The notes under the pieces are model-generated. The model was not told the origin of the DNA, ran no database searches, and saw only the letters and a program-made list of their open reading frames with translations. The position numbers and the translations under genes are program-made. DNA of 64,000 bases, from positions 1 to 64,000 of the forward strand of contig JAJYLT010000019.1 in NCBI GenBank assembly GCA_021787565.1, read 5' to 3'. Source of the DNA: Acidobacteriota bacterium. GTDB taxonomy: Bacteria; Acidobacteriota; UBA4820; DSQY01. Below, piece after piece: positions 42,145 to 64,000 of this stretch (position 1 is the first letter of the stretch; every line of letters starts with the position of its first letter).

Positions 42145-42273
42145 CAGGATCGCCGTGCCGGCAGACCTCAAGGCCGGCAATCCCAGCTAATCCATCGCAT
42201 TTCTCGTCCCATTGGCGCAGGGGTGTACCGGGTATTGCGACGCAGTACCCATGAGAGATCGGAGGTCGGTGTG

Positions 42274-45200
42274 ATGCAAAGGCGGACACTTTTCCTATTC
42301 GTGCTTGGGTTGGTGCTGACTCTCGCGCTGGTTCCTGGGCTCTTTGCTCAAGGGGCCAGCCCAGCTTCCTGCGGTACCATAGGCCCCATCAACAACAACG
42401 ACACGATCGTCCTCAGGGGCAACGTGAACCCTCTCGCCCAACCCCAGGCGGACTATGGCTTCGCCGACCCGGCGCGGCCGATGGACCGGATCATTCTCAC
42501 GCTGAAGACGAGCCCCAGCCGGCAGGCCGCTCTGGACCGCCTGCTCGCCGAGCAACAGGACCCGACCTCTCCTCGCTTTCATCATTGGCTCAGCCCCGAG
42601 GAGTTCGGTCGGCGCTTCGGGCCAAGCAGGACGGACCTGGCCACGATCACCCGCTGGCTGCAATCGCAGGGTTTCACCATCGACGAAGTGGCCAAGGGCC
42701 GGCTGTGGATCAACTTCAGCGGGACCGTCGCCGAGGTGGAGAGCGCTTTCCGCACCCAAATTCACCGGTACTACGTGGCGGGAGTGATGCACCACGCCAA
42801 CGCCGTGGATCCCTCGATCCCGAAGGCGCTTGCCGGCGTGGTGGCGGGCATCGTCTCACTGGACGATTTTCCGCGACAGGCCATGAATATGGGGTTCCAG
42901 AAGCTGTCTCCCCAGGACGCCGCCGCCGTTTACGCCAAGTACGGCAAGATCGCGCCCCAGTGGAGCGGCACCGCCAACGGCACCGCCGGGGTTTACGCCA
43001 GCCCCATTGACTGGGCCACCATCTATGACGCGAACGCCTCCTACAGCGCCAACGGTACCGGCACGGGCGTGACCATCGGCATCGTCGGCCGCACCAACCC
43101 CGGCACCACGAACTGGTCCACCTTCCGTAGCGTCCTGGGACTGCCCGTGAACACACCCACGATCATCGTCAATGGTACCAACCCCGGCGACCTGGGCGCG
43201 GGCGAGGATGGGGAGGCCGACCTGGACGCCGAATGGTCCGGCGGCGTGGCCCCGGGGGCTACGGTCAAATTCGTGGCTTCGAAGTCCACTACTTCGACGG
43301 ACGGCGTTGATCTTTCGGCGCAGTACATCGTCAACAACAACATCGCCGACGTCATGAGCACCAGCTTTGGCTCCTGCGAGTCGGCCATGGGGTCGGCCGA
43401 GAATACCTTCTACAATAACCTCTGGTCCCAGGCCGCCTCGCAGGGCATCACCGCTTGCATCTCCACGGGCGACAGCGGTCCCGCCGGGTGCGCCGCGGGC
43501 AGCGCCACCACCGGCTCCGGCCAGTCGGGCGTGAACGGCCTCGCCTCCACGCCCTACGACATCGCCGTGGGAGCCACGCAGCTCAGCAACTCCAGCAGCT
43601 ACTGGAACGCCTCGGGTGCGGCCACCGGCTACATCCCCGAGACGCCCTGGAATGAGAGCGGCACGGTGAGCGGCGGATCGGGCCTCTGGTCCACGAGCAG
43701 CGGCGCCTCCAGCACCTACGCCAAGCCCTCCTGGCAGTCGGCGCCCGGCGTGCCGAGCGCCAGCCACCGCTACCTGCCCGACGTGTGCCTGGACGGCTCC
43801 GACATGTTCTTCGGGAACTATGGCATGCTGGTCTACACCCAGGGCGCCATGGCCACCACGGGCGGCACCTCGGCGGCCTCGCCCTCCTTCGCCGGCCTCA
43901 TGGCCCTCGTGGTTCAGAAGTACGGCCGGCAGGGCAACGCGAACACGAAGCTCTATCAGCTCGGCACGGCCCAGTACAACGGGACGGGGCCGGCCGTCTT
44001 CCACGACATCACCTCGGGCAACAACAACGTTCCGGGCCTGACGGGCTTCACCGCCGCCACCGGATGGGACGAGGTCACGGGCCTGGGCACGGTAGACGTG
44101 GATGCCCTGGTCAACAATTGGAACGGGACGACCACGACCTACAGCATCTCGGGGACGGTGAGCGGTGCGGCGACCTCCGGGGTGACGATGACCCTCAGCG
44201 GAGCGGCCAGCGCCACGACCACCACGGCCAGCGGCGGGACCTACAGCTTCGCGGGGCTCGCCAACGGCAGCTACACGGTGACGCCAAGCAAGTCCGGCTA
44301 CACCTTCTCCCCGGCAAGCGCCTCCGAAACGGTGAGCGGCGCCAACATCACGGGCGTCAACTTCACCGCCACGGCCGTGCCCACTTACAGCATCTCCGGG
44401 ACCATCACCCTGAACGGCGCCGGTCTCTCCGGCGTCACCGTCTCCTCGGGCACCGCATCGGCCACCACCAGCAGCGCAGGCGCCTTCACGCTGACGGGCT
44501 TCCCGAGCGGCACTTACACGGTGACTCCGAGCCTGACCGGCTACACCTTCTCCCCCGCCAGCCAGTCGGTCACCGTCAGCACCGCCAACGTGACGGGCGT
44601 GAACTTCACCGCCTCCGTGGTCACGGGCCCCACGACCCTTTTCAGCGATGGGTTCGAGAGCCAGTTCACGGGGTGGTCTACGGCGCAGGCCTCGGGGACA
44701 GCGGGCGCGTGGACGGCCGTCACCTCCGGCCCCTATCCTTCGGCCTCTCCCCACGGCGGCTCCTACTTGGCCGACTTCAACTCCTATACTTCCGCCAGCG
44801 GAAGCGAGACGCGCCTGTATAGGACGGCCGGCTTCGCCATCCCCTCTTCCGCCAGCACGGTCACGCTGACTTTCTGGATGTACCACGACACGGGCTACTC
44901 GTCGGACAACGACCGCGTGCAGGCGCAGGTCTCCACCAACGGCAGTACGTGGACCAACGTCGGTTCTGCAGTCTCCCGTTACAACGGCAGCACCGGCTGG
45001 GCGCAGGTCAGCATCGACCTGAGCACCTACAAGGGTCAGTCGAGCGTACGGCTCGGCTTCCTGGGCATTAGCGCTTACGGCAACGACTGCTACATCGACG
45101 ATGTGGCGGTGGTGATGCAGGGCGGCTCGGCCACTTACGGCATCTCGGGAACGGTCTCCGGAGCCGTGACCAGCGGCGTGACCGTGACCCTAAGCGGAGC

Positions 45201-46836
45201 GGCCAGCGCCACGACGACCACGGCCAGCGGCGGGACCTACAGCTTCGCGGGGCTCGCCAATGGCACCTACACGGTAGCCCCGAGCCTCTCCGGCTACACC
45301 TTCACCCCGGCGAGTGCCTCCGAAACGGTGAACGGCGCCAACGTCACGGGCGTGAACTTCACGGCCACGGCCAACCCGCCCTCCACTTACAGCATCTCCG
45401 GTACGATCACCTCGGGCGGCTCCGGCCTGTCGGGCGTGGCGGTGACCGCGGGTTCCGCCTCGGCCACCACGAGCTCTACGGGTGCCTACACCCTTTCCGG
45501 GTTGGCCAACGGCACCTACACGGTGACCCCGACCCTGAGCGGCTATACCTTCTCCCCCGCCAGCGCCTCCGAGACGGTCAATGGCGCCAACATCACCGGC
45601 GTGAACTTCACGGCCGCGGCTTCTGGCGGCGGCGGCACGGGTCTCACCAACGGCGGGTTCGAGAGCGGCCTGACGGGCTGGACGGCGGCCACGGGCTCGG
45701 GCACCGTGGCGCCGGTGGCTTCCACGGGGAAGAAGCACTCGGGCAGCTACTCGGCCTATCTGGCGGGGAGCGGGGGCGGATCGGCGACCAACTGCATCCT
45801 GTACCAGAACGTGACGGTTCCGGCCGGCGGCGGGACGCTCTCCTTCTGGTACTACCCGATCTCTCCGGACACGATCACGTACGACTGGCAGGAGGTGGAC
45901 ATCTGCAACACGAGCGGCACCGTGCTCGCGAACGTGATGAAGGTATGCAGCAACGCCCAGGCGTGGACCAACAAGACCTTCAGTCTTGCATCCTACGCGG
46001 GCCAGACGATCCAGATTCGGTTCACGGACCACGATGACGGCTACTCGGGCGACCAGACGAACATGTACGTGGACGACGTAACGATCACGGCCCCGGCAGC
46101 GACCTACACCGTCTCGGGCACCATCACCTACAACGGCTCGGGTCTCTCGGGGGTGACGGTCACGGCGGGCTCCGCCTCGGCCACGACGAACAGCTCCGGT
46201 GCCTATACCATCAGCGGTCTGGCCAACGGCACCTACACCGTGACGCCCGGCCTGGCGGGCTACACCTTCACGCCCGCTAGCGCCTCCGAAACGGTGAACG
46301 GCGCCAATATCACGGGCGTCAACTTCACCGCCGCGGTGGCGAGCGGTCCCGCAACCCTCTTCAGCGACGGCTTCGAAAGCACGACGGGTTGGGGCTCGGT
46401 TTCGGTCTCAGGCTCAACGGCTTCGTGGTCCCAGGCCGCCTCGGGCTCCTACCCGAGCGCATCGCCTCACGGCGGCTCTTACCTCGCGGACTTCAACTCT
46501 TACAGCGCGAACGCCGGTGACACGGCAAGAATCTACCGGACCTCCGGCTTCGCCGTGGCGGGCACCTACACGACGGTGACCCTGACCTTTTGGATGTACC
46601 ACGATACGGGCTACTCCAGCTACAACGACCAGGTGCAGGTGCAGGTCTCCACGAACGGCACCACGTGGACCAACGTGGGCTCGCCGATCTCGCGCTACAA
46701 CGGCAGCACCGGCTGGGCCCAGTCCACGGTGGACCTGAGCGCCTACAAGGGCCAGACGGTCTACCTGGGCTTCCTCGGCATCAGCGGCTACGGCAACGAC
46801 GAGTATCTCGACGATGTAAGCGTCACCGCACAATAA
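42274..46836 (+). CDS. S53 (sedolisin/kumamolisin) peptidase with repeated C-terminal modules
   Basis: 1520 residues, secreted. Signal peptide (FLFVLGLVLTLALVPGLFA); pro-kumamolisin activation domain (about 45-200) with HHWLSPEEFGRRFGP. The S53 catalytic domain (about 215-612) has Glu/Asp in GEADLDAEW, the oxyanion Asp in STGDSGPAGC and nucleophile Ser in TTGGTSAASPSF. Then come five carboxypeptidase-regulatory-like repeats, each with YSISGT...GYTFSPAS and GVNFTA, alternating with jelly-roll modules. Two of these are near-duplicates (SDGFES...GGSYLADFNSY...YHDTGYSS). An acid-active extracellular endopeptidase is expected. ATG 42274 or GTG 42271, with GGAGG 8 bases upstream. Confidence 0.93.
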   Translation: MQRRTLFLFVLGLVLTLALVPGLFAQGASPASCGTIGPINNNDTIVLRGNVNPLAQPQADYGFADPARPMDRIILTLKTSPSRQAALDRLLAEQQDPTSPRFHHWLSPEEFGRRFGPSRTDLATITRWLQSQGFTIDEVAKGRLWINFSGTVAEVESAFRTQIHRYYVAGVMHHANAVDPSIPKALAGVVAGIVSLDDFPRQAMNMGFQKLSPQDAAAVYAKYGKIAPQWSGTANGTAGVYASPIDWATIYDANASYSANGTGTGVTIGIVGRTNPGTTNWSTFRSVLGLPVNTPTIIVNGTNPGDLGAGEDGEADLDAEWSGGVAPGATVKFVASKSTTSTDGVDLSAQYIVNNNIADVMSTSFGSCESAMGSAENTFYNNLWSQAASQGITACISTGDSGPAGCAAGSATTGSGQSGVNGLASTPYDIAVGATQLSNSSSYWNASGAATGYIPETPWNESGTVSGGSGLWSTSSGASSTYAKPSWQSAPGVPSASHRYLPDVCLDGSDMFFGNYGMLVYTQGAMATTGGTSAASPSFAGLMALVVQKYGRQGNANTKLYQLGTAQYNGTGPAVFHDITSGNNNVPGLTGFTAATGWDEVTGLGTVDVDALVNNWNGTTTTYSISGTVSGAATSGVTMTLSGAASATTTTASGGTYSFAGLANGSYTVTPSKSGYTFSPASASETVSGANITGVNFTATAVPTYSISGTITLNGAGLSGVTVSSGTASATTSSAGAFTLTGFPSGTYTVTPSLTGYTFSPASQSVTVSTANVTGVNFTASVVTGPTTLFSDGFESQFTGWSTAQASGTAGAWTAVTSGPYPSASPHGGSYLADFNSYTSASGSETRLYRTAGFAIPSSASTVTLTFWMYHDTGYSSDNDRVQAQVSTNGSTWTNVGSAVSRYNGSTGWAQVSIDLSTYKGQSSVRLGFLGISAYGNDCYIDDVAVVMQGGSATYGISGTVSGAVTSGVTVTLSGAASATTTTASGGTYSFAGLANGTYTVAPSLSGYTFTPASASETVNGANVTGVNFTATANPPSTYSISGTITSGGSGLSGVAVTAGSASATTSSTGAYTLSGLANGTYTVTPTLSGYTFSPASASETVNGANITGVNFTAAASGGGGTGLTNGGFESGLTGWTAATGSGTVAPVASTGKKHSGSYSAYLAGSGGGSATNCILYQNVTVPAGGGTLSFWYYPISPDTITYDWQEVDICNTSGTVLANVMKVCSNAQAWTNKTFSLASYAGQTIQIRFTDHDDGYSGDQTNMYVDDVTITAPAATYTVSGTITYNGSGLSGVTVTAGSASATTNSSGAYTISGLANGTYTVTPGLAGYTFTPASASETVNGANITGVNFTAAVASGPATLFSDGFESTTGWGSVSVSGSTASWSQAASGSYPSASPHGGSYLADFNSYSANAGDTARIYRTSGFAVAGTYTTVTLTFWMYHDTGYSSYNDQVQVQVSTNGTTWTNVGSPISRYNGSTGWAQSTVDLSAYKGQTVYLGFLGISGYGNDEYLDDVSVTAQ
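44140..46833 (+). repeat. Internal coding repeats of the S53 peptidase
   Basis: Five ~80-residue repeats at about 44140-44380, 44388-44620, 45133-45375, 45388-45620 and 46100-46340. Two jelly-roll modules at about 44632-45120 and 46350-46833 are closely similar at the DNA level. A different jelly-roll lies at about 45640-46095. Confidence 0.8.
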
Positions 46837-46857
46837 CCGAGCGATCCGCTCATCCTC

Positions 46858-46887
46858 AAAGGGGGGCGCCTTCGGGTGCCCCCCTTT
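46858..46887 (+). terminator. Intrinsic terminator of the S53 peptidase gene
   Basis: 13-base stem AAAGGGGGGCGCC / GGTGCCCCCCTTT (one G-U pair) with a TTCG tetraloop, followed by a short T run inside the arm. It begins 21 bases after the stop codon. Confidence 0.9.
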
Positions 46888-46954
46888 CAATTGGGCGGGG
46901 GGAATGCCGCACCCCTTGCGGAACGATCCCAGGGGCGAGTAGCATGCAAGACCA

Positions 46955-47044
46955 GGAGAGATGGCCGAGAGGTCGAAGGCGCCTGACTCGAAATCAGGTT
47001 TACCGGTAACGGTAACGGGGGTTCAAATCCCTCTCTCTCCGCCA
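46955..47044 (+). tRNA. tRNA-Ser (anticodon CGA)
   Basis: Class II tRNA beginning GGAGAGATGGCCGAGAGG. Anticodon arm CCTGA-CTCGAAA-TCAGG (anticodon CGA), long variable arm ACCGGTAACGGT, T-arm GGGTTCAAATCCC. Acceptor end TCTCTCC, discriminator G and encoded CCA. 90 bases. The sequence to its right is accessory DNA. Confidence 0.97.
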
Positions 47045-47102
47045 GAAAACAAAGGACTTACGCGAGGGCGGCCACGGTGCCGCCCTTGGTCGTTTTTTGG
47101 TC

Positions 47103-47124
47103 GGGCCACACCTGGGCCACACCT
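47103..47124. repeat. Perfect tandem 11-base repeat next to tRNA-Ser
   Basis: GGGCCACACCT occurs twice head-to-tail, 59 bases beyond the tRNA end. Possibly part of an integration site or arm-type site of a lost integrase. Confidence 0.5.
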
Positions 47125-47181
47125 TCAGCGGAAATCGGACCCCTCACGGGGGCGCGGAAAGGTCCGACCCACTCCGCAGAC

Positions 47182-47209
47182 TTGTGGTGCGCCACAGGGG
47201 TGCTAGACT
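47182..47209 (+). promoter_or_regulatory. Predicted promoter of DUF932 gene
   Basis: TTGTGG, 16-base spacer, TAGACT (with TGC before it, an extended -10). Confidence 0.4.
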
Positions 47210-47290
47210 CTGGACAGCAAGCCATCCTAGAGCGGCTCATGATCCTTGTGGTGATCGAAGGGGGATGTCTCCATTCAAGGGAGGGGGACC

Positions 47291-48301
47291 ATGGCGCACA
47301 ATCTTGAGATCGTTGACGGAGAGGCCTCCATGATGTACGTGGGGGAGCCGCCGTGGCATGGACTCGGGACGCAGTTGGAGAAGCCGGCGACGGCCGAGGA
47401 GGCGATCCGGGCCGCCGGGATGAATTGGGACGTGCGCAAGGTTCCGCTGGTGGCCGCCATCGATGAAGCCAGAATTCCGGTTAGGGGGAGATTCGCCATC
47501 GTGAGGGTGGATGTCCGGGGCAACCCCCGCCACCCGGTCCTTGGGTTAGTAGGGAAGGGCTACGAGCCCTTGCAGAACCACGAAGCCTTTGAATTCTTCG
47601 ACCACATCGTGGGCAAGGGAGCGGCCATCTACCACACGGCTGGAGTTCTGGGAGAGGGAGAACGAATTTGGATCCTGGCGAAGCTGCCAGGGGAGATCCG
47701 CGTCGTAGGCGACGACATCACGAACAAGTACCTGCTGCTCAGCACCTCCCACGACGGGAGCGGGGCGGTTCAGGTCAAGTTCACCCCCGTCCGCGTGGTG
47801 TGCCAGAACACACTCATTCAGGCTCTCAGCCGCGGCCGCACCGTCAAGGTGGCCCACACCCGCAACATCAAAGAACGCTTACACTTGGCGGAGGAGATGC
47901 TCGGGATCGTGACCAAGGGCTACGACACCACCGCCGAGAGCTATAGGGCCATGAGCCACTACAAGATAGATACTCCAAAGCTGAAGGCCTATCTGGAAGC
48001 AGTCTTCCCCTTGCCCGCGAATGGGAAGGAGCAGGATGCAAACCAGGAAACCCGGAAAAGGGTCGTCCAGAGAAGGAACCTGGCCGAGGGCTGCTTCGAG
48101 AATGGGCGGGGGCAGTGCCTGAAAGGGGTTTCAGGAACCCTGTGGGCGGCCTATAACGCGGTCACGGAGTCCGCTGACCACCTCTGGGGCCACCGCAACG
48201 ATGACCGGCGCTTGAACTCGCAGTGGTTCGGGGAGGGCTACCAGGTGAAGGCCCGGGCGTATGAGGTTGCCCTCAAGACCCTCCAGCAACCTGCCGCCTG
48301 A
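47291..48301 (+). CDS. DUF932 (phage/plasmid-like TIGR03299) protein
   Basis: 336 residues. Starts MAHNLEIVDGEASMMYVGEP with PWHGLGT, the family hallmark. Then GLVGKGYEPLQNHEAFEF, VQVKFTPVRVVCQNTL and the C-terminal FENGRGQ...TLWAAYNAVTE. Such proteins are frequent on phages, plasmids and islands; the function is not known. RBS GGGAGGGG. First gene of the island after tRNA-Ser. Confidence 0.88.
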   Translation: MAHNLEIVDGEASMMYVGEPPWHGLGTQLEKPATAEEAIRAAGMNWDVRKVPLVAAIDEARIPVRGRFAIVRVDVRGNPRHPVLGLVGKGYEPLQNHEAFEFFDHIVGKGAAIYHTAGVLGEGERIWILAKLPGEIRVVGDDITNKYLLLSTSHDGSGAVQVKFTPVRVVCQNTLIQALSRGRTVKVAHTRNIKERLHLAEEMLGIVTKGYDTTAESYRAMSHYKIDTPKLKAYLEAVFPLPANGKEQDANQETRKRVVQRRNLAEGCFENGRGQCLKGVSGTLWAAYNAVTESADHLWGHRNDDRRLNSQWFGEGYQVKARAYEVALKTLQQPAA

Positions 48302-48648
48302 AGGTGCCGATTTAGGGACCTCGGGGTCGGAGGGGGGAATCAGGAGGGCATTCGCCCCGACTCCCGGCATTGGCAGGACCACCCCCCGCCCCCCGGGGGG
48401 ACGGGTCAGGAATCCCGGCGTGCGCGTGCCTTCGCTCTAACATGTTGCCGACGGAACATTTGCCCCAGATTAGGGTGCCACTGGCCAGAGCCCGACCACC
48501 CCACAACTTCCCAAGCACGGATTCAGACGTAGCGGGCAGCTCTGGTGAATCCCCGACAAGCGGCGGATGGGGTTACATCCGTGCTCGCCCAGATCAGCCC
48601 CAATCATTCGTGTGGCGACGACCACAAGGGCCACGGGCCAAATCCCGC
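48302..48648. other. Intergenic region with island repeat copy A
   Basis: No gene recognised. 48379-48480 contains a G/C-rich repeat (ACGGGTCAGGA, then CTTCGCTCTAACATGTTGCC and GACGGAACATT). Related copies occur at 51047-51130 and, in part, at 60718-60757. Confidence 0.55.
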
Positions 48649-50826
48649 TTAGGTCCTGGCGCCGTTTCCGTAAACCAGGATCTTTCCGCTTGGGGCGCCG
48701 CTTGCCTTGATCGTAAGACTACGGACCACGAGGGGGAGCACATGGTACTGGTCAGCCAGGTTGAGCAGATAGATCCCTAATGCCCAGCAGAGGATGTGTT
48801 GGCTCCCCATGCCCGTCATGCACAAGAAAGCGGATGGAATGACCTTATTGTGCGGTTGGGCCCTCCTCTCCCAGAGATTCTTTAGCCCCTTTTGGAACTC
48901 CTGCACCCTGTCCCTGATGGTGCGAAAGCCGTCCCGGGGGGCATTGTTATCGATTGAGGCGACGATCTCCTTGAATGTATCCAGAGATGTCGCCAGGCGT
49001 TCATAGCCAAGGAGCGCGGAATCAGTTACCCCCGCACCGCGAAGCCAGGCCTCTACCGTGTTTCCTGGATCCGTCCCTAAGTCCTCGCCAGGCGGAAGGT
49101 TAAGATAGTCTACCCAGGGCCCCTTGTAGACAGCGGTTCTCGTTGGAATGTCCCTGCGCTGAGGAAGGTCCTTCACCCACGGCATGGCCGTTGCCAATGC
49201 AGATGAGAAATCCGGGAGCTTGCTGGCATCCCCAGCAATGAAGAGCGAATTTACGGCTTTCTGGTCCATAAGAAGCTGAAAATCAAGCTGAATGTTGCCG
49301 CGAAGTGATCCAAGGACCTCCTGAAGCTTCGTCGCGGAATCCCCCTCTACGACCTTCCAACTCTTGGCCAGGTCCAACCAAGTTCCTCGGTTCGTATCAT
49401 TCACGGGACCATTGGGGGAGTAAAGGAGATGGAACCCCAGTTGAAACTCGGAGACCGGCGGCTCTTCCTTTGGAACCTGATGGAAGTGATCCATGTCCGC
49501 TTTGAAGTCGGTGGTCCACTGAAGGTCACCGCGGTTGTAGGATCGAAGCCCCTCATAGGCCACCTTCTTCCGGTCGTTGATATCCAGGGACACGTCGGAA
49601 ATGAAAGTAGTCTTGTCCTGGCCGACGAGCTTCCAGCTCCCAATGGCCAATGAGAACCCCCAGGCATGGTCTTTCTCAAGGGTCTGTCGCCGGAGGTATT
49701 GCTCCAAAGCTATGGCGGGAGGCTTCTGTTGGACCCTTGCAAGGACGGCGCCCAGATCGCCTCGCATGAAGGAAAGGCGAACCTCATCTGTCAGGCTAGT
49801 CCTCTTGATAATCCCCTGAAAGAGCACGGAATCGGTTGAAACCCGACTATACGAGTATTCGAATCCGGCCGCGGCCTTCTCCTTCGCGGTGTCCAAGAGG
49901 CGATTGCTGGCCGCTTGCTGCACCTCTTGGCCGAGACTCGTGTAGGTTGATCCAAGGAGATCCTCCAGAAGCTTCTGGGCGTCAGCTTGGTCAAAGCCGG
50001 CAATCTGAGCCGTTACGCCAAGCTTGCCCCCCGCTGCCAGCTTCTTCGTTTTGGCCTTGGTTATCGCAACTCTGACCCGATCGTCGCTCAGGCCCGCAAA
50101 GACGACTCGGAAGTCATCCGCTGCCGTTATGCTCACCGAAATCGAGGCTCCAAGATCCACTTCAACACCAAGCCCCGGAAGGTTAGCTAGTGATGCCAGG
50201 GTACCAAGGGCTTCGGTGAATATGTCGGCCCAGGACAAAGTTACAGACGCCGAAATAGAGGCTGTTCTCCTCAACGAGATGGCCTCACCAGGTTGGAGAG
50301 CCTTGATATCGTCCAACGTGAGCGCAAACTGCCCGTCCCGCATGTCTTGTTCCACACAGGTACCGAGAATGGATGTAGGGGGATGAAGGCGATAATCGCA
50401 GAACCGCAGCGTTTCGGAAGTATCGAATCCAAGTTTCAGATTGGCCAGCACCGGCGCGCCAATGCTCTCGTCGAGCTTCCCTTCAATACCGTACTTCACC
50501 CAATACTCTCCCCTGGGCGATGGTGAACCCTCCACTAGGGGAGGGGGGGCATCGTTACCCGCTGCAGAATCACGAGGCAGCAAAACGGCGTCCGGGTCTT
50601 TGTCCTTGCTTTGTGGAATGGAGGTGAAGACCGTGAGGTCGGCTGAAGAAGTGGCTTGGAGCTTGATCGCCGTCGTCCCCCCAAGTGGGATCGACGGAGA
50701 GGCGGATAGACTCTCCCGGACGACAAAGCTGGGGAAGACGGGAAGCTCCTTGTCCTCCAAGCTAAGAGAAGCGCACTCTTTGAGCCCCTTGAGCTTTTGC
50801 CATGCATCCTTCAGGTTTGTGGCCAT
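48649..50826 (-). CDS. Large hypothetical protein, 725 aa
   Basis: No family recognised. No signal peptide; probably soluble. The N-terminus (MATNLKDAWQKLKGLKECAS) is followed by beta-rich segments. Residues about 190-215 (ISLRRTASISASVTLSWADI) and about 225-250 (GVEVDLGASISVSITAADDF) look like amphipathic strands. A helical region follows (DQADAQKLLEDLLGSTYTSL), and the C-terminal part contains SAFLCMTGMGSQHILCWALG. Composition is less GC-rich than core genes. ATG 50826 is the probable start; the frame is open 60 bases upstream. It stands alone on the minus strand between the DUF932 gene and the restriction operon. Confidence 0.75.
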   Translation of the reverse strand: MATNLKDAWQKLKGLKECASLSLEDKELPVFPSFVVRESLSASPSIPLGGTTAIKLQATSSADLTVFTSIPQSKDKDPDAVLLPRDSAAGNDAPPPLVEGSPSPRGEYWVKYGIEGKLDESIGAPVLANLKLGFDTSETLRFCDYRLHPPTSILGTCVEQDMRDGQFALTLDDIKALQPGEAISLRRTASISASVTLSWADIFTEALGTLASLANLPGLGVEVDLGASISVSITAADDFRVVFAGLSDDRVRVAITKAKTKKLAAGGKLGVTAQIAGFDQADAQKLLEDLLGSTYTSLGQEVQQAASNRLLDTAKEKAAAGFEYSYSRVSTDSVLFQGIIKRTSLTDEVRLSFMRGDLGAVLARVQQKPPAIALEQYLRRQTLEKDHAWGFSLAIGSWKLVGQDKTTFISDVSLDINDRKKVAYEGLRSYNRGDLQWTTDFKADMDHFHQVPKEEPPVSEFQLGFHLLYSPNGPVNDTNRGTWLDLAKSWKVVEGDSATKLQEVLGSLRGNIQLDFQLLMDQKAVNSLFIAGDASKLPDFSSALATAMPWVKDLPQRRDIPTRTAVYKGPWVDYLNLPPGEDLGTDPGNTVEAWLRGAGVTDSALLGYERLATSLDTFKEIVASIDNNAPRDGFRTIRDRVQEFQKGLKNLWERRAQPHNKVIPSAFLCMTGMGSQHILCWALGIYLLNLADQYHVLPLVVRSLTIKASGAPSGKILVYGNGART

Positions 50827-51329
50827 GCTAGGTACTCCTCCCTCTCGCGGACATAGCCGTGGGTGCCGTTCACCTCGGCCTGCCATGCTACAAACTTAGG
50901 TCGCCCATGAGGAAAAGAAATCACCCCCACGGGTGATGGCGACTTTGCCCCAAAGAATGATGGCGATATCAACGGGAAGCATGAGAGATCGGCACGCGGC
51001 GAATCGCGCCCCATACCATTCCGCGGAACACCACATGGCGAATAGGGCCGGGGGGACGGGTCAGGATCCGCAGGTTGCACATCCCTTCGCGCTGATATGT
51101 TGCCCGACGGACATTAACCCCCATTAGGCCGTCTTGCGTGCTGGTAACGCTCCCGCGGGCTCCAGGAGACGCGAAAGCGCCTGGGGATCGTGCAGCCCCG
51201 TCCCTTGTCGTGGCTGTTGCGGGGCGGAAACGGCAAAGGGGCGCCCTAGGACCGCGACGGCTGGAAATTGTCCGTGGGCCTATCAGGGGAGTATGCTGAA
51301 TGCCTTCATCCAACGATTGGGGGGTCTCC
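50827..51329. other. Intergenic region upstream of hsdM with island repeat copy B
   Basis: Contains a hairpin TCACCC-CCAC-GGGTGA near 50924, repeat copy B (51047-51130) and the predicted hsdM promoter. No gene recognised. Confidence 0.5.
51268..51297 (+). promoter_or_regulatory. Predicted promoter of the hsd operon
   Basis: TTGTCC, 18-base spacer, TATGCT; the predicted transcript start near 51304 argues for ATG 51330 over the ATG at 51300. Confidence 0.45.
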
Positions 51330-54278
<2,949 letters not shown>

Positions 54279-54279
<1 letters not shown>

Positions 54280-55784
54280 TGGTCGGGAAGGAAAAATCGG
54301 TATTTGACCCGCGCCGGATGATGGAGATGGCAATCGAGGCTATGCGGCATTCTGTGGCCGAGCGGCGTACGGATGGCAAGGCCAGTCCAAAAGTGGGAGC
54401 AGTGCTTTGGAAGCCGGATGGGACGATCGAAGAGGCGTGGCGCAGCGAGTTGCGGGACGGAGATCACGCCGAGTACACACTGCTGGAGCGGAAGAACCGG
54501 GACGCCAAGCTCGACGGCGCCGTAATGTTCGCGACGCTCGAGCCCTGCGCACCGGGCTCACGTCACCATCCGAAACTGGGCTGTGCAGAACGGATTGTCC
54601 TGGCCAGGATCAAGGAAGTATACGTAGGCATCGAGGACCCGGACCCCACAGTGGACCGCAAGGGGATCAAGTATTTGCAGGACTGTGACGTGATCGTCCA
54701 TATGTTCGATCGGGATCTTCAGGAAGAGATTCAAGCGGCGAACAAGGAGTTCATCGAGCAGGCGTTGGAGCGGGCCGCCGCAGCGCGTGAAGCACAGAAG
54801 CATGAGCCAGTCGTGCTTTCTGCGTTGGAGAGGGTACTCCCGGCGGCACAGTTGGGTGACCTCGATGCCGGTGCGCTTGAAGAGTATCGCAGCATCTCTG
54901 GAATTCCTGAAAAGGTCGAATCTCCCGAGTTCAAGCGGCGCCTGATGTTCCAAGGTCTGGTTCGGGAAGAAGGGGCTGTGCTTGTTCCCACGGGATTTGG
55001 CGTACTACTTTTCGGCAAGGAGCCACGGTCGCAGATCGTGCAGGCGGGCCTTCTCGGGACCATCCATTATGCCGACGGCAGGGAGGAAACGCGCGACTTC
55101 GACGGCCCGGTGGTGGATATCCCCGCCCAGGCCATCCAGTGGCTGAAGGACAAGCTTCCCAATCCGATCGTGCGGACACAGGCCAAGCGGGCGGACTTGC
55201 AGGAGACCCTTTTCGAGCTTATTCGCGAAGGTATCGTCAACGCACTGGTCCACCGTGACTACAGCATCGCAGGGGCGAAATGCCAGCTTTCAGCGAGTGA
55301 GGACAAGGTCGTGGTCATGAGCCCCGGCATGCCGGTGGCACCGATTACCATGGAGCAGATGAGGTCATTCGATGCCCCGATGCTGAGCCGAAATCCGGCG
55401 CTGCATTACGTTTTCGCGAAGATGAGACTCGCTGAAGAACGGGGACTCGGGCTCAAGTCAATGAAATATCGGGCCCAAGCCGCGGGGCTGCCGCTGCCGT
55501 CCTACGCTTTCAAGGCGCCCTATGTAGTCCTGACGCTCTACCGGGACGCTAAGGCGGCGATTTCCGGTGTGGCCTCCGAAGTCCTCAGAAAGCTCAGTGA
55601 AGCGGAGCGAAACGGTTGGAACTGGCTGGTCACGAAGGAGTCAATCACGACCGCGGAATATCAGATCGCGCTTGGACTTCCCAACCGGACGGCAAAGAAT
55701 CACCTTAAGAGGCTAGCCGAACTCGGCCTCTTGCGCAAGAAGGGGGCTGGCCGGGCGACGCGCTATGAGGTGGTGCGGCCGTAA
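54279..55784 (+). CDS. RibD-like deaminase fused to GHKL ATPase (RecG-like/COG2865 type) and winged helix
   Basis: 501 residues. Residues about 10-145 form a zinc deaminase domain: HAE (His63, Glu65), then PC at 89-90 and a second Cys at 102, within TLEPCAPGSRHHPKLGC. EDPDPTVDRKGIKYLQ resembles RibD-type deaminases. A helical linker (150-215) leads to a domain with the GHKL N-box REGIVNALVHRDYS (Glu317, Asn321) and glycine motifs MSPGMP and EERGLGLKSM. This is the ATPase part of COG2865 proteins (HATPase_c_4). Residues about 430-501 form a winged helix. COG2865 proteins normally carry an AlbA/Schlafen DNA-binding domain at the front; here it is replaced by the deaminase. Encoded inside the hsd operon. 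Function unknown; defence or regulation inferred. Confidence 0.85.
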
Positions 55785-55802
55785 CCGGAAAGCGGGCCGC
55801 AT

Positions 55803-55825
55803 ATCGGGCCGCCATGGCCCGATTC
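55803..55825. repeat. Palindromic repeat upstream of hsdR, copy 1
   Basis: ATCGGGCC then GCCATGGCCCGATTC; near-palindromic (ATCGGGC...GCCCGAT). A second copy lies 62 bases downstream. Confidence 0.75.
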
Positions 55826-55864
55826 TCCTATTTGGATCGGCACTGCCAAGGAATTGGGCCATGG

Positions 55865-55887
55865 ATCGGGCTGCCATGGCCCGATTC
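55865..55887. repeat. Palindromic repeat upstream of hsdR, copy 2
   Basis: Same sequence as copy 1 with one change (C to T at the eighth base). A related GGGCCATGG lies between the two at 55857, and GGGCCATGCCTGGCCC at about 55990. Confidence 0.75.
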
Positions 55888-56044
55888 ACTCGAACGACAG
55901 GGCGCGAGTCTGGCCATTCTGGCTAAGGAATATTGGGGATATGATGGAGCCTATTGTGGATCAGAGAGTTAGCTGCTTTCGGCTAATCCCGGGCCATGCC
56001 TGGCCCATTTCAGGGGCATTCAGCAGGCCGCTGTGGGGACCTGC

Positions 56045-59179
<3,135 letters not shown>

Positions 59180-59223
59180 GGGCCAAGGGCTATGGGAGGC
59201 GCTGTGGGGGGGTGGGGCAGAGG

Positions 59224-59430
59224 TCAGGCTGGCATGAAGGAGAGGGTCAAGAAGCCCTTGGGCTCCCCCCGTTCCTCCATTTGTTCGGCAAGGACTTCGA
59301 GGGCAAGGCGCTGCACCGTCGCCAGGGCTTCTTTCTTGGTGCGCCCATACACCAAGACGCCGGGCAGTTGCGGTATATCCGCAATCCAACGCCCATCTTC
59401 CTCGCGGTCGAATTCCACCTTTAGGACCAT
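59224..59430 (-). CDS. HicB-like antitoxin (orphan)
   Basis: 68 residues from ATG 59430 (GGAGGA 5 bases upstream). The HicB fold is visible in MVLKVEFDREEDGRWIADIP, QLPGVLVYG and EALATVQRLALEVLAEQ. No HicA toxin is next to it, and no C-terminal DNA-binding domain is present. Possibly a remnant or a solo HicB-type protein. Confidence 0.8.
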   Translation of the reverse strand: MVLKVEFDREEDGRWIADIPQLPGVLVYGRTKKEALATVQRLALEVLAEQMEERGEPKGFLTLSFMPA

Positions 59431-59493
59431 GATGAATCCTCCGGGGTTGGGATGCCCCCCCGTCACTCCGGGGCAAGGCGCGGGGCGGGCGCC

Positions 59494-59751
59494 CTACCGG
59501 TAGACTTCCCGGCGGTGGGCGATGCGGACCACGAGGACGAGGAGAACCCTGTCCTTGATGGTGTAGACCACGCGGAAGTCTCCGGCGCGGATGCGGTAGA
59601 GGTCCGACTCCCCCGTGAGTTTGACCACCCCAGCAGGCCGGGGTACCTCCGCCAGGGCGTCCACGGCGGCGCGGATGTTTCGTTGGGCGGCTCTGGGTAA
59701 CTTCGCGAGACTTCGGGCGGCGGAGGGCCGTAGCTCGATCCTGTAGGCCAC
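59494..59751 (-). CDS. RelE/ParE family toxin (pair 1)
   Basis: 85 residues. YRIELRPSAARSLAKLPRAA at the start and LYRIRAGDFRVVYTIKD...VVRIAHRREVYR at the end are typical of RelE mRNA interferases. It lies 3 bases downstream of its antitoxin gene. The last 12 residues are identical to those of the second toxin. Confidence 0.92.
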   Translation of the reverse strand: MAYRIELRPSAARSLAKLPRAAQRNIRAAVDALAEVPRPAGVVKLTGESDLYRIRAGDFRVVYTIKDRVLLVLVVRIAHRREVYR

Positions 59752-59754
59752 GGC

Positions 59755-60000
59755 TTACAGCCCTAAGTCGGCCTTGACCTTTTCCCAGGGGATGGAGCCC
59801 TTTTCCTTGAGCGCCTTTCGGGCGGCGCGAACGTCGGCCCTGTTTTCCAGCTCTTCAAGGAGAAGCACGTCCTCGATGGGGACCACGGCCACGAGTTCCT
59901 TACCGTTACGCGTCAAGACGATGCGCTCCTTTTCAAAGGCCGCCTTCGTCACCACGTCTGAGAACTTGGCCCGCGCTTTCACGGTGGTAATGGTGGTCAT
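59755..60000 (-). CDS. Phd/YefM family antitoxin (pair 1)
   Basis: 81 residues. Phd fold: TTVKARAKFSDVVTKAAFEK and ERIVLTRNGKELVAVVPIED. The C-terminal acidic/helical tail (about 55-81) should wrap the toxin. First gene of its pair; the RBS GGGAGG is 8 bases upstream. Confidence 0.9.
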   Translation of the reverse strand: MTTITTVKARAKFSDVVTKAAFEKERIVLTRNGKELVAVVPIEDVLLLEELENRADVRAARKALKEKGSIPWEKVKADLGL

Positions 60001-60020
60001 GGAATGTGCCTCCCGGACAT

Positions 60021-60049
60021 AATGTACAGTACGGACGCCGTGCTGTCAA
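60021..60049 (-). promoter_or_regulatory. Promoter/operator of toxin-antitoxin pair 1
   Basis: On the minus strand: TTGACA (60049-60044), 17-base spacer, TACATT (60026-60021). The small palindrome GTACAGTAC (60024-60032) overlaps the -10, as expected for an autorepressed Phd operator. Confidence 0.6.
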
Positions 60050-60079
60050 CGGCGGGGGGCAGGGCGCGGGCCGGGCGCC

Positions 60080-60340
60080 TTACCGGTAGACTTCCCGGCG
60101 GTGGGCGATACGGACCACAAGGACCACAAGGCGGTCATCCTCTACGGCGTAGATGATCCGGTAGTCGCCGACACGGAGGCGAAGCAAAGGCGGCTTCGAT
60201 CCCCGGAGAGTCTTCACTCCATGCGGGCGTGGGTCGGTAGCCAGGGCGTTGATGCGGGCGTCAACTCGCAGGCGGGCCGCCTTCGGGAGTGCGGCCAACG
60301 CTTTCTTTGCGGACGGGGTTACTTCCAGGCGGTAGGTCAC
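60080..60340 (-). CDS. RelE/ParE family toxin (pair 2)
   Basis: 86 residues. TYRLEVTPSAKKALAALPKA, LLRLRVGDYRIIYAVEDD and the same VVRIAHRREVYR end as pair 1. Overlaps its antitoxin gene by 4 bases. Confidence 0.92.
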   Translation of the reverse strand: MTYRLEVTPSAKKALAALPKAARLRVDARINALATDPRPHGVKTLRGSKPPLLRLRVGDYRIIYAVEDDRLVVLVVRIAHRREVYR

Positions 60341-60591
60341 TCCAGCCCTAGCTCTTGGCGAACCTGTTCGTAAGGGATGGGCTTCTCGGCTGGGTCCGCC
60401 AGGATACGCTCGGCCTCTTCCACGTCCATGCGGTCCTCGAAGGCCTCAAGGGCCTCGAGGTCTTCGATGGGAACGAGGGCGGCCACGGCCTTGCCCCGGC
60501 GCTCGATGATGAAGCGCTCACCCTTCCGGGCAGCCCGGTCCAGCGTGGTCTTCATTCCCCGGCGCAGCGCGCCCGTGGTCATGCGGGTCAT
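60337..60591 (-). CDS. Phd/YefM family antitoxin (pair 2)
   Basis: 84 residues. LRRGMKTTLDRAARKGERFI and IERRGKAVAALVPIEDLEAL match Phd/YefM; acidic C-terminal tail. RBS AGGAGG upstream of ATG 60591. The antitoxin is far less similar to its neighbour than the toxin is. Confidence 0.88.
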   Translation of the reverse strand: MTRMTTGALRRGMKTTLDRAARKGERFIIERRGKAVAALVPIEDLEALEAFEDRMDVEEAERILADPAEKPIPYEQVRQELGLE

Positions 60592-60628
60592 ACCGTGTTC
60601 CTCCTGGGATCGGAACTATCCCACCGGA

Positions 60629-60657
60629 AACATACACCCGCCAGCGCAGAGGGACAA
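60629..60657 (-). promoter_or_regulatory. Predicted promoter of toxin-antitoxin pair 2
   Basis: On the minus strand: TTGTCC (60657-60652), 17-base spacer, TATGTT (60634-60629). Confidence 0.45.
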
Positions 60658-60717
60658 GGCACCTCGCCGGCGCCAGGATCGGGCCGGCCTTCGTCACCGA
60701 TGCCGCCCATCACTGAA

Positions 60718-60757
60718 CACCCCCCGCCCCCCGGCGGAACGGGTCGGCAAGCCCCCC
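60718..60757. repeat. Island repeat copy C (partial)
   Basis: Shares CACCCCCCGCCCCCCGG and ACGGGTC with copy A at 48379, but not the ATGTTGCC part. Confidence 0.5.
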
Positions 60758-60841
60758 CGGCCCTGGCCGCCTAACTAATAGTGTCCACCCCCTGAGTTTT
60801 TTCCCAGGTTCCTTTCTGGGTAGCCTCCCTGTGCTTGAAGC

Positions 60842-61138
60842 CTAGTAGGGGGTCCCTCCCCGGACGATTGCTACCCTTACGGGCTCGGCAAATCTATCTT
60901 GGCTTCCGATTACCTCAACCTCGCCCGACACGGTCACGTCACCCTCTACGGCAGCGACCATTAAGGGGCGCTGCATCAGAAGGCGGTTACGTTGGCTCGG
61001 GTCCTTGACCATCCTGATCTCTCCAATAGTGGGCGGAGCTTTGGGCAAGCTATTCAGGATCCTGACTTGGACCCACAACACGGCGGCAAGAAGCGCTAGA
61101 ACGGCCGCCCCCCAAAGTATCTTCAGTAGCTTTTCCAT
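60842..61138 (-). CDS. Small membrane-anchored hypothetical protein
   Basis: 98 residues. One N-terminal membrane helix (ILWGAAVLALLAAVLWVQVRI), then a polar domain ending in beta-like VEGDVTVSGEVEVIGS. No family recognised. ATG 61138 has GGGAGG 5 bases upstream. Confidence 0.65.
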   Translation of the reverse strand: MEKLLKILWGAAVLALLAAVLWVQVRILNSLPKAPPTIGEIRMVKDPSQRNRLLMQRPLMVAAVEGDVTVSGEVEVIGSQDRFAEPVRVAIVRGGTPY

Positions 61139-61369
61139 TTCTGCCTCCCTCGGTGGGTGCCCCCGGCTCATTCTCAAGCAACAACTCTTGAAGGTATCAC
61201 GGGGCCGAACTCTGCTTCACATTGAAGGCAGTAAAGCACCCCCCGGGGGAAGTGGAGCGGCCGGCAATGAGCCTGCCCGCGTGTCTGGCAACGATCAGGC
61301 CCCCGCCAGGTTCTTTCCCTCAATGCTGATATGAGGTCACTACGGCTCCGCGTCATCCGGGCGGCGTGC

Positions 61370-61399
61370 TTGCCGTGCGAGGTTTATCGGGGATAGTCT
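61370..61399 (+). promoter_or_regulatory. Predicted promoter
   Basis: TTGCCG, 18-base spacer, TAGTCT, 20 bases before ATG 61420. Confidence 0.4.
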
Positions 61400-61419
61400 G
61401 GGGCACAAGGGAGGCCACT

Positions 61420-61941
61420 ATGAATAGGGGGATTCTGGTCGTTATCTTTGGGGTGTTGATTGCCTCGTGCGCATCAAGGCCGCCAGTGGTGCAGCGTGCA
61501 GGCTTGCCACCAGGGGCCGAACTGGCGATTATTTCCTTCCGTGATTGCACCATCAATGGGCAGGAAGACTGCGACGGCTCGGGAAACACGGCCGCGGGGA
61601 TCTTCGCGGAGGTCTTCTCCTCAACGTCCCGCTATCTTGCCGTACCGCTTTCAAGGCCAGTAGGACCGAAGGAGCCACTCACCGATGACGAGGCAGTCAA
61701 ATACGCCAAGAGCAAGGGATTCCCTTACGTCATGAATGGCGAGGTGGACGAGTACTATAGGGTTTCTCCATTTACCTTTAGAACCGAGCGTGCCGGGGTT
61801 TCTTTGAGGATTCTCCGCGTTTCAGACGGTTCCGTAATCGCCTTCTTCAGCCAGCGGACCCATTCCCAATCCAACCTGACCACGCCAGATAAGCTCATCA
61901 AGAAAATGGCACAGCACGTCAGGGATTCCCTGCGGGAATAG
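61420..61941 (+). CDS. Predicted lipoprotein, 173 aa
   Basis: Signal peptide with lipobox LIASC (MNRGILVVIFGVLIASC). Mature part includes FRDCTINGQEDCDGSGNTAA and a C-terminal half (GEVDEYYRVSPFTFRTERAG, LRILRVSDGSVIAFFSQ) resembling outer-membrane-associated lipoproteins that vary around a GNA1162/CsgG-like fold. That link is tentative. Envelope location is expected. Confidence 0.75.
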   Translation: MNRGILVVIFGVLIASCASRPPVVQRAGLPPGAELAIISFRDCTINGQEDCDGSGNTAAGIFAEVFSSTSRYLAVPLSRPVGPKEPLTDDEAVKYAKSKGFPYVMNGEVDEYYRVSPFTFRTERAGVSLRILRVSDGSVIAFFSQRTHSQSNLTTPDKLIKKMAQHVRDSLRE

Positions 61942-62013
61942 ATCGGCTGCCCACAAACAACTCCATTCCCGGCTTGGCTACGACGAGTCCCCGGAACTGA
62001 ATCAGCGGTCCAG

Positions 62014-62547
62014 CTATTTCGCCTTGGCTTCCGTGACCTTCAACCCCTTGTCCCGCTCCAGTGTTTGAACGATGGCCTTGGATAGGGACTCGAAGGCCTG
62101 CGTGCGATCCCCGGGGTCGAACATATCTCCCTCGGCTTCTGTCGTAACGGTGGCCACGGTTTTGCCCGTGACGGCATCATCAAACGACACCGTGAGCAAG
62201 TTCTCTTCTTCGCTGGAAGAGATCATGGCCATTCGCGCAATCAAAGTCTGCCGTTGTTGGTCGGTTGTGAGGCCCTGGTACTCCTTGTCTCCTATCACGT
62301 TCCAGTTGTAACGCTCCATGAGGTTAGCAAACTCCACGTCCATTCCGTACAGGCTCGCGGAAGTCTTCTCGCCGGGCTTGGCCACGACAAGGTAGTTGTA
62401 GCGCGCGAACGAAAACCCGGGCGAGTAAACAACTCTGTACGCCTGCCCCGCGGCACAGCCGAGAATAAGGACCGCGCAAGAAAGTAACGCGACGGCCCTT
62501 CCGGTGATCGTTCCCCCACACCTACGCCCCAGTATTTCGGTCCCCAT
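62014..62547 (-). CDS. Predicted lipoprotein, 177 aa
   Basis: From ATG 62547 (GGAGGAGG upstream). Signal peptide TGRAVALLSCAVLILGC with lipobox LILGC. The mature domain (FSFARYNYLVVAKPGEKTSA, AMISSSEEENLLTVSFDDAV, TVATVTTEAEG) resembles small lipoproteins of DUF4136-like type; not certain. Independent of the convergent lipoprotein gene at 61420. Confidence 0.75.
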   Translation of the reverse strand: MGTEILGRRCGGTITGRAVALLSCAVLILGCAAGQAYRVVYSPGFSFARYNYLVVAKPGEKTSASLYGMDVEFANLMERYNWNVIGDKEYQGLTTDQQRQTLIARMAMISSSEEENLLTVSFDDAVTGKTVATVTTEAEGDMFDPGDRTQAFESLSKAIVQTLERDKGLKVTEAKAK

Positions 62548-62913
62548 GCCTACCTCCTCCCGTCTACGGTTCATCGCAAGGGGGAAGCTCCCCAAACCCC
62601 CGTTGTCCATCCTTGCGGTTCCGGTGGAGTCAGCGTACACCCCCGAGACGCCGGCGGCAACGCTTGGGGCGCGCGCCCTGCCTTTCGGGCACACGAATCA
62701 CGCTATAACCCAAGCCCCACAAGGGTTATAGCCCTGGTTCGCGCGCACGCGCCCGCGCGCGTTGAGGCGCAGAGAGAAAAAGCAAAGGGGCCAGCTTGCG
62801 ACTGGCCCCAGGGGTGGAGGCGTGGAGAACGCCGGAGAGACGAGGCTACGTGAACCATGGGCGGGCGGCCCCTACGTGCGTAGGCGAGGCCGGGCCGGCC
62901 GCGTTGCGCTTGC
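62548..62913. other. Intergenic region between the lipoprotein gene and the phage-like block
   Basis: Contains the terminator at 62775-62810 and a GC-rich alternating stretch (GCGCGCACGCGCCCGCGCGCG near 62740-62761). No gene seen. Confidence 0.5.
62775..62810 (-). terminator. Intrinsic terminator of the minus-strand phage-like genes
   Basis: On the minus strand: GGGGCCAG-TCGCAAG-CTGGCCCC followed by TTTGCTTTTT. Confidence 0.85.
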
Positions 62914-63615
62914 TTAGCGGGCGAAGGACCAATCGCCCCAGTAGGGCGTGGAGGGGGAAGAGCCGCCGGTGAGTCTGGCCCCGGCGAACTTCTGCCAGGT
63001 GTAGGTTGGCTCACCGAAGGCCGGCTGGGAGAGCTCGTCATGAGGCACCACGGAGGGCGTTGTGGGAGCGGGCCAGGCGCTCCCCAGGGTGGACATGGTT
63101 TCGCGTCCGAGTTGGTTCAGGCTGGCGTTTACGCGGTCCTGCGCCGCCTGCATGGCCTGGGTCTGGTTCAGCTTGTAGGCGAGGCGCATCTTGTCCATGC
63201 TCTGGTTGAACTGTTGCCTGCGCTGGCCCTGCGCCATCTTGCCGCCGAGGGCCCAGGCGTGGAGGGCCTGCCCCGTGTTGGCGTTGACGCCCTGGGCGTT
63301 GGTGTCCTGGCCCTGGTCCATGGCCCGCATCATGGCCCCCGAGTAGGCGCCGCCCTCGGGCACTTGGGCCATGGCCTCGGAAGCGGGGTAGCCGGAGCGC
63401 ATCTGCGAGGCCGTGTCGAGGACGTGGACGGGCGCACCCCTGTACTTCTGGATGAGCCCGTTCCAGGTGTCCTTCTCCAGGTGGTTGGCGAGTTTCTCCT
63501 TGCGCCCGGCGGAGATGTCCATGAAGGGCACGGTGGAGGTGTTGTCCTTGGCGCTCTGGGCGGCGGCGGTTTGGACGCCCGCGGCGATGAGGGGAAGGAA
63601 GGCTACTGCTGGCAT
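62914..63615 (-). CDS. Phage-like virion-associated hypothetical protein
   Basis: 233 residues from ATG 63615 (GAGGAGAT 7 bases upstream). It opens with MPAVAFLPLIAAGVQTAAAQ, a hydrophobic stretch typical of small phage internal or injection proteins. A Gln/Ala/Met-rich helical centre follows (QQFNQSMDKMRLAYKLNQTQ; AMQAAQDRVNASLNQLGRE). The C-terminus is Pro/Ser/Trp-rich. Overlaps the upstream gene. Phage origin is inferred from composition and position. Confidence 0.6.
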   Translation of the reverse strand: MPAVAFLPLIAAGVQTAAAQSAKDNTSTVPFMDISAGRKEKLANHLEKDTWNGLIQKYRGAPVHVLDTASQMRSGYPASEAMAQVPEGGAYSGAMMRAMDQGQDTNAQGVNANTGQALHAWALGGKMAQGQRRQQFNQSMDKMRLAYKLNQTQAMQAAQDRVNASLNQLGRETMSTLGSAWPAPTTPSVVPHDELSQPAFGEPTYTWQKFAGARLTGGSSPSTPYWGDWSFAR

Positions 63616-63851
63616 GGTGTTATCTCCTCGGTGGATAGCCTTCGCCACTCCGCCTTGAACCCTTCCGGCAGCTCCCAGCGCCATTCAGACTCAGGGGCGC
63701 CGAGTGGGCACAGGGCGATCCGGTAGGTGGGCAAGTTGTCGGCTCCCAGGGCCATGAGTAGGCGAATGAAGAGGCCGGGAACCGGCTCTACCAGGTCAAC
63801 CGGCTGCCAGTTTAGGTTCGGATCGGGTAAGGCGGGCTCCGTTCGTTCCAT
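63603..63851 (-). CDS. Small hypothetical protein, phage-like block
   Basis: 82 residues, acidic and proline-rich (TEPALPDPNLNWQPVDLVEP), no family recognised. It overlaps the next minus-strand gene by 13 bases, so the two form one transcription unit, which may extend past the window edge. Confidence 0.6.
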   Translation of the reverse strand: MERTEPALPDPNLNWQPVDLVEPVPGLFIRLLMALGADNLPTYRIALCPLGAPESEWRWELPEGFKAEWRRLSTEEITPCQQ

Positions 63852-64000
63852 TGCACGTTCTCCACACTGGAAAATTTAACGCCTTCGATGGGGCCATGCA
63901 ACTTTTTGCCTTTCAGGGCAAGGCCATTCGTCGTATGTTTCAAACTTGAATCATTTCGCGTCGAAGGACTGCGAGGTCGGGCGTTGGGGCCGTGGACCGG
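63852..64000. other. Window edge, no gene seen
   Basis: The last 149 bases show no convincing gene. An AT-richer stretch at 63870-63955 could hold a promoter for the minus-strand unit. Confidence 0.3.

What the first reader, a model, noticed from the sequence alone, without database searches (positions are those of the whole stretch)
48649..50826. Unrecognised 725-residue protein in the island
A long intact minus-strand gene with lower GC than the surroundings, no recognised domain, placed between a DUF932 gene and a restriction operon and flanked on both sides by copies of the same repeat. Position suggests an independent cargo module.
Basis: partly seen in the sequence, partly recalled or inferred. 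Interest (0 to 1): 0.55.

Follow-up and report, generated by a model that had tools for sequence, protein, structure and literature searches.

The report
Undescribed protein carried by mobile island
A 725-residue protein that no family library recognises is carried by a mobile island beside a transfer-RNA gene in an Acidobacteriota bacterium; it belongs to a scattered, undescribed protein family whose distant relatives sit beside membrane- and cell-wall-attacking enzymes, so it may be an envelope-acting effector, but its function is not shown.

Summary
An intact 725-aa minus-strand gene (ribosome-binding site, GC 56.5% against 64.6% for the window) matches nothing in Pfam, PHROGs, NCBIfam, PADLOC or PDB sequences. 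It lies between DUF932 and a type I restriction operon, bracketed by direct copies of a 74-nt repeat. The 'cargo' reading is supported and sharpened: the gene sits in a ~22.5-kb island beside tRNA-Ser, with a tyrosine integrase and a 68-bp perfect copy of the tRNA 3' part at the far end. The site is nearly empty in the sister genome. It is not an orphan. Six full-length relatives (24-30% identity) are scattered through Acidobacteriota, and longer distant relatives share its N-terminal half. In three loci a relative adjoins one membrane-protein family. Two of these keep the order patatin phospholipase - relative - membrane protein - peptidoglycan amidase, and one opens a contractile-injection-system cluster. 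CHAT proteases lie near two close relatives. My best reading is an envelope-acting effector family, here a stand-alone mobile copy. The partner genes are not beside it, CHAT and the membrane partner were not found in its genome, and the fold is unsolved (pLDDT 36-51), so mechanism confidence is low. An anti-phage role is possible but untested.

The parts
48649..50826 (-). the gene: 725-aa protein without library family; member of an undescribed Acidobacteriota family
48393..48466 (+). flanking repeat, copy 1 (direct), between the convergent 3' ends of the DUF932 gene and the 725-aa gene
51048..51121 (+). flanking repeat, copy 2 (direct), 74% identical, between the gene's 5' end and hsdM
60715..60754 (+). 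shorter third copy of the repeat
46955..47044 (+). tRNA-Ser (cga) at the left end of the island; its 3' part recurs as a 68-bp perfect copy at contig position 69585-69652, beyond the window
47045..64000 (.). part of the ~22.5-kb island that lies in the window (it runs on to about contig position 69.6 kb, with the integrase at 68226-69455)
47291..48301 (+). neighbour: DUF932 protein
51300..52940 (+). neighbour: type I restriction HsdM (N6_Mtase, HsdM_N)
56033..59179 (+). neighbour: type I restriction HsdR

Best explanation
The gene is a stand-alone, horizontally moved member of an undescribed superfamily of large (630-1080 aa) proteins of Acidobacteriota. SHOWN: intact coding gene; family homology; cargo of a tRNA-Ser-linked integrative island; patchy distribution with one copy per genome; distant relatives encoded beside a membrane protein, a patatin-type phospholipase and a peptidoglycan amidase, in one case inside a contractile-injection-system cluster. 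INFERRED: the protein is an effector made in the cytoplasm that acts at the cell envelope (membrane insertion or disruption by its strand-rich N-terminal half, followed by a helical region and a C-terminal domain). Relatives would do this together with lipid- and wall-degrading partners. The island copy would act alone, as a toxin-like or altruistic-defence cargo next to a restriction system.
For: Family: 8 of 396 phylum genomes (own included) match the single protein and 13 of 396 match the profile; G447 was added from another draw; 6 full-length relatives at 24-30% identity; one copy in each of 6 genomes checked. Purifying selection in the G075/G052 pair, dN/dS 0.39 over 306 codons. Profile-profile: ~1000-aa group 97%, E 4.8e-11; ~640-aa group 94.5%, E 7.5e-8. 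Neighbours: one membrane-protein family adjoins a member in G447, G241 and G079. The order patatin - member - membrane protein - Amidase_2 occurs in G079 and G241. In G079, Pvc16_N, sheath, gp19 tube, Baseplate_J, Tail_P2_I and eCIS_core follow. A GH19 gene lies 59 bp downstream in G126. CHAT genes lie near the member in G230 and G066, 2 of 9 genomes against 0.17 expected within 6 kb. Island.
Against: The window gene has none of the partners beside it. Its genome has no CHAT match and no membrane-partner match at E<=1e-8. Sheath was found near only 1 of the 16 member loci examined, and not in the wider flanks (about 30 kb each side) of G126, G066, G230, G367 and G447, though only the G079 sheaths were used as queries. 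The two patatin - member - amidase loci carry related members, so they may be one event. CHAT was picked after seeing the neighbours, so P 0.011 is optimistic. Several close members stand alone beside housekeeping genes: glutamyl/glutaminyl-tRNA synthetase and phosphomannomutase in G367, and a gene that reads by eye as a RimO-type methylthiotransferase in G075. No fold match: models at pLDDT 36.5 and 51, no significant Foldseek hit.
Confidence: 0.35

Rival explanations
1. Anti-phage cargo: the protein is a single-gene defence (for example an abortive-infection effector) that travels with the type I restriction operon in a defence island.
For: Island with type I restriction genes, two ParE/Phd-type gene pairs, a TOTE-type primase and an integrase; the gene is an isolated repeat-bounded module.
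Against: No PADLOC model. The relatives' neighbourhoods show no restriction, CRISPR or other plain defence genes among the proteins scanned. Position alone is weak evidence.
Confidence: 0.25
2. Effector (cargo) of an extracellular contractile injection system, kept on the island after loss of the injection machine or used with one elsewhere in the genome.
For: A distant relative lies inside a full eCIS cluster in G079; the membrane-partner family also lies near a sheath gene in G122.
Against: 1 of 16 member loci only; no sheath or tube match in the window or the rest of its contig; the membrane-partner family also occurs in loci where no sheath was found.
Confidence: 0.15
3. Large cytoplasmic enzyme or structural protein without any role in conflict, spread by chance on mobile DNA.
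For: Invariant polar residues in the seven-sequence family (Y145, R146, H148, D161, D237, R252, K257 and others); lone copies in varied contexts.
Against: H148 and D161 are not kept once the distant member L020 is added; sparse distribution, island location and recurring lipid/wall-enzyme neighbours fit conflict genes better.
Confidence: 0.25

Closest known systems
tRNA-integrated genomic islands with tyrosine integrases
   Same: tRNA-Ser at one end, repeat of the tRNA 3' part at the other, integrase next to the repeat, nearly empty site in the sister genome
   Different: the sequence flanking the right repeat (219 bp) does not match the sister genome, so the exact junction is unresolved
eCIS-associated toxins and effectors
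   Same: a distant relative is encoded inside an eCIS cluster next to patatin and amidase genes
   Different: the window gene itself has no eCIS gene in its contig, and most relatives show none in the stretches read
CisA of Streptomyces coelicolor (membrane factor needed for CIS firing, PMC12237407, passages read)
   Same: the membrane-partner family here is also found in or near CIS clusters
   Different: no sequence link was tested; CisA is described as single-pass with a conserved C-terminal domain, while the partner here shows about three hydrophobic stretches by eye
Protease-activated membrane effectors (gasdermin-like systems; recalled)
   Same: clan-CD proteases (CHAT) lie near two close relatives and a caspase-amidase fusion lies beside the membrane-partner family in G126
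   Different: no sequence or fold match to gasdermin; the own genome has no CHAT match

Membership tests
Cargo of a tRNA-linked integrative island | integrase gene and tRNA-derived direct repeat bounding the segment | tested here: met
   tRNA-Ser 46955-47044, 68-bp perfect copy at 69585-69652, Phage_integrase E 1.4e-17 at contig 68226-69455
Cargo of a tRNA-linked integrative island | absent from the same site of a close relative | tested here: met
   G001 has 43541-47125 followed directly by 69872-71064
Any family of Pfam, PHROGs, NCBIfam or PADLOC | profile match of the 725-aa protein | tested here: not met
   0 families at E<=10; seven family members scanned in Pfam gave only scattered one-member matches, best E 6.4e-4 to PF04201 TPD52
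eCIS-associated effector | gene inside or next to eCIS structural genes | tested here: not met
   no sheath, tube or Pvc16 match in the window or the rest of the contig; met only for the distant member in G079
eCIS-associated effector | loaded into and ejected from the particle | not testable with these tools
   needs purified particles
Protease-activated pore former (gasdermin-like) | clan-CD protease partner beside the gene | tested here: not met
   no CHAT match in the own genome; CHAT near the member in 2 of 9 genomes
Protease-activated pore former (gasdermin-like) | gasdermin or other pore-former fold | tested here: inconclusive
   models of low confidence, no significant match
Anti-phage defence system | match to a known defence protein model | tested here: not met
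   PADLOC 0 families
Anti-phage defence system | protection against phage | not testable with these tools
   needs a plaque assay

The most novel reading that the evidence does not exclude
The family is a new class of membrane-perforating effectors used by Acidobacteriota in self-lysis or attack modules (phospholipase, membrane protein, peptidoglycan amidase, caspase-like protease), some wired to contractile injection systems. Single members have been captured as stand-alone anti-phage or toxin cargo on integrative islands.
Probability: 0.12. Interest if true: 0.75.

Novelty: new variant of a known kind. Interest (0 to 1): 0.42.

Why it matters
It turns an 'unknown' island gene into a testable protein family with a recurring partner and a conserved four-gene neighbourhood tied to lipid, wall and injection machinery. 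If the envelope-effector reading holds, it would add an unrecognised effector class, with its own membrane partner, to the toxins of a little-studied phylum, and show how parts of such systems become mobile cargo.

Tried and rejected
Library searches with the protein alone and with relatives: no usable match. Close-relative scans of genome contigs and viral contigs with the single protein and of viral contigs with A4 and A11: nothing. Plasmid and phage tblastn with the protein, and with one close relative, one distant relative and the membrane partner as listed in the calls: nothing. Structure: full protein with three sequences pLDDT 36.5, N-terminal half of a relative pLDDT 51. Foldseek gave no match with E<=0.001; in the VIA-align look no row reached Z 5. 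Lipid-binding proteins, barrels and pneumolysin appear among low rows, and I draw nothing from that. The repeat as promoter operator was rejected because copy 1 lies between two convergent 3' ends. An active-site reading of the Y-R-x-H motif was dropped because the distant member L020 does not keep H148. The membrane partner also occurs on a 7.3-kb viral contig without a family member. Three weak profile matches (G456, G492, G498) were not followed up.

Papers: PMC12237407, PMC12998442, PMC8213781 and PMC11297309 were read as found passages only. None of the terms patatin, caspase or amidase occurs in those four main texts; all other papers were seen in search listings only. I found no paper on this family in those searches, which name functions and phyla rather than this sequence.

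Full report
WHAT IS THERE. The ORF at 48649-50826(-) is intact and codes for 725 aa, with a good ribosome-binding site before its ATG. Its GC (0.565) is lower than that of any non-overlapping stretch of equal length tested in the window. It has no match at E<=10 in four profile libraries and none of note among PDB sequences. The flanking repeats are real: two direct copies of 74 nt at 74% identity bracket exactly this gene, a shorter third copy lies at 60.7 kb, and a search of the own genome finds no other convincing copy. Copy 1 lies between convergent gene ends, so it is not a promoter element. The layout fits a module bounded by recombining repeats, which is an inference.

THE ISLAND. ARAGORN places tRNA-Ser(cga) at 46955-47044. 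In the sister genome G001 of the same genus, window 43541-47125 is followed directly by contig 69872-71064 at 94% identity. At 69585-69652 the own contig carries a 68-bp perfect copy of the tRNA's 3' part. Next to it, at 68226-69455, is a tyrosine integrase with an Arm-DNA-bind_3 domain. The gene therefore rides on a ~22.5-kb integrative island. Also in the island: a helix-turn-helix protein, a TOTE-type primase, a ParE toxin gene with a Phd-type antitoxin gene and a near copy of that pair beside it, and the restriction genes. The 219 bp right of the 3' repeat do not match G001, while 73 bp right of the tRNA repeat do, so the exact junction is not resolved.

THE FAMILY. With the single protein 8 of 396 phylum genomes match, own included; with a six-sequence profile 13 of 396. 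No other genome of its own order matches (1 of 13, own included). Six full-length relatives (G230, G126, G075, G066, G367, G447) share 24-30% identity along the whole length, one copy per genome. G052 holds a fragment at a contig end; against G075 it shows dN/dS 0.39 over 306 codons. Distant relatives, similar mostly in positions ~100-350, are ~1000-aa proteins (G241, G019, G338, G079), ~640-aa proteins (G233, G217, G163) and a 743-aa protein (G171). Profile-profile comparison supports the first two groups (97%, E 4.8e-11; 94.5%, E 7.5e-8).

NEIGHBOURS OF RELATIVES. Sixteen member loci were examined: seven full-length close members including the window, the G052 fragment, and eight distant members. 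Not every neighbour in every locus was put through Pfam. A membrane protein without Pfam family adjoins the member in three: G447 (close member), G241 and G079. In G241 and G079 the order is patatin - member - membrane protein - Amidase_2. In G079 a sigma-54 activator, Pvc16_N, sheath, tube, baseplate genes and an eCIS_core protein follow, so that locus is a true eCIS cluster. In G126 a GH19 gene starts 59 bp after the member; elsewhere in the same genome the membrane protein stands beside a caspase-Amidase_2 fusion. CHAT genes stand near the member in G230 (two genes) and G066. With the CHAT counts of nine genomes the expected number with a CHAT within 6 kb is 0.17 and P(2 or more) 0.011, but the domain was chosen after the fact. 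Against a general injection-system link: no sheath was found by blastp with the G079 sheaths in the wider flanks of G126, G066, G230, G367 and G447, nor in the window's contig.

HOW IT MAY WORK. Both suggest long strands in the N-terminal half followed by helices, but confidence is too low for fold claims and the fold searches gave nothing significant. Given the recurring lipid-, wall- and protease-type neighbours of relatives, I think an envelope-acting effector is the most likely role (0.35). For the window gene this must work without CHAT or the membrane partner: the own genome has no match to either. Its place beside a restriction system makes an anti-phage role a fair rival (0.25). A plain enzyme or structural protein is as likely as that (0.25).

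VERDICT. Observation confirmed; the cargo interpretation is supported, with the island now defined; function open. An undescribed but real protein family in a known kind of mobile island: new variant of a known kind, interest 0.42.

Noticed in passing
window 54279-55784 (+): A 501-aa protein between the HsdM-side genes and HsdR joins a zinc deaminase domain (dCMP_cyt_deam_1, weaker Inv-AAD) to a RecG-C-like HATPase_c_4 domain; a deaminase inside a type I restriction operon is unusual.
   Followed up: no
window 52924-54279 (+): The gene in the place of the specificity subunit HsdS has no Pfam match even at E<=0.1.
   Followed up: partly
window 59494-60591 (-): A ParE/Phd-type gene pair followed by a near copy of itself (93% over 69 nt).
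   Followed up: partly
L078:5943-8930 (-): G126 encodes a caspase (Peptidase_C14) fused to Amidase_2 beside the membrane-partner protein.
   Followed up: partly
L077, L095, L096: G079 carries an eCIS cluster with two sheath genes, patatin, amidase and an eCIS_core protein.
   Followed up: partly
L111:1226-2431 (+): The membrane-partner protein also occurs on a 7.3-kb viral contig, without a family member beside it.
   Followed up: partly
contig C63 69653-69871 (beyond the window): 219 bp right of the tRNA-end repeat match nothing at the sister genome's site, while 73 bp right of the tRNA do; the island junction is not the simple textbook one.
   Followed up: no
L021:881-1792 (-): TOTE-type archaeo-eukaryotic primase domain in the island.
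   Followed up: no
window 42223-46836 (+): 1537-aa pro-kumamolisin-activation protein with many beta-sandwich and MAM domains just outside the island.
   Followed up: no
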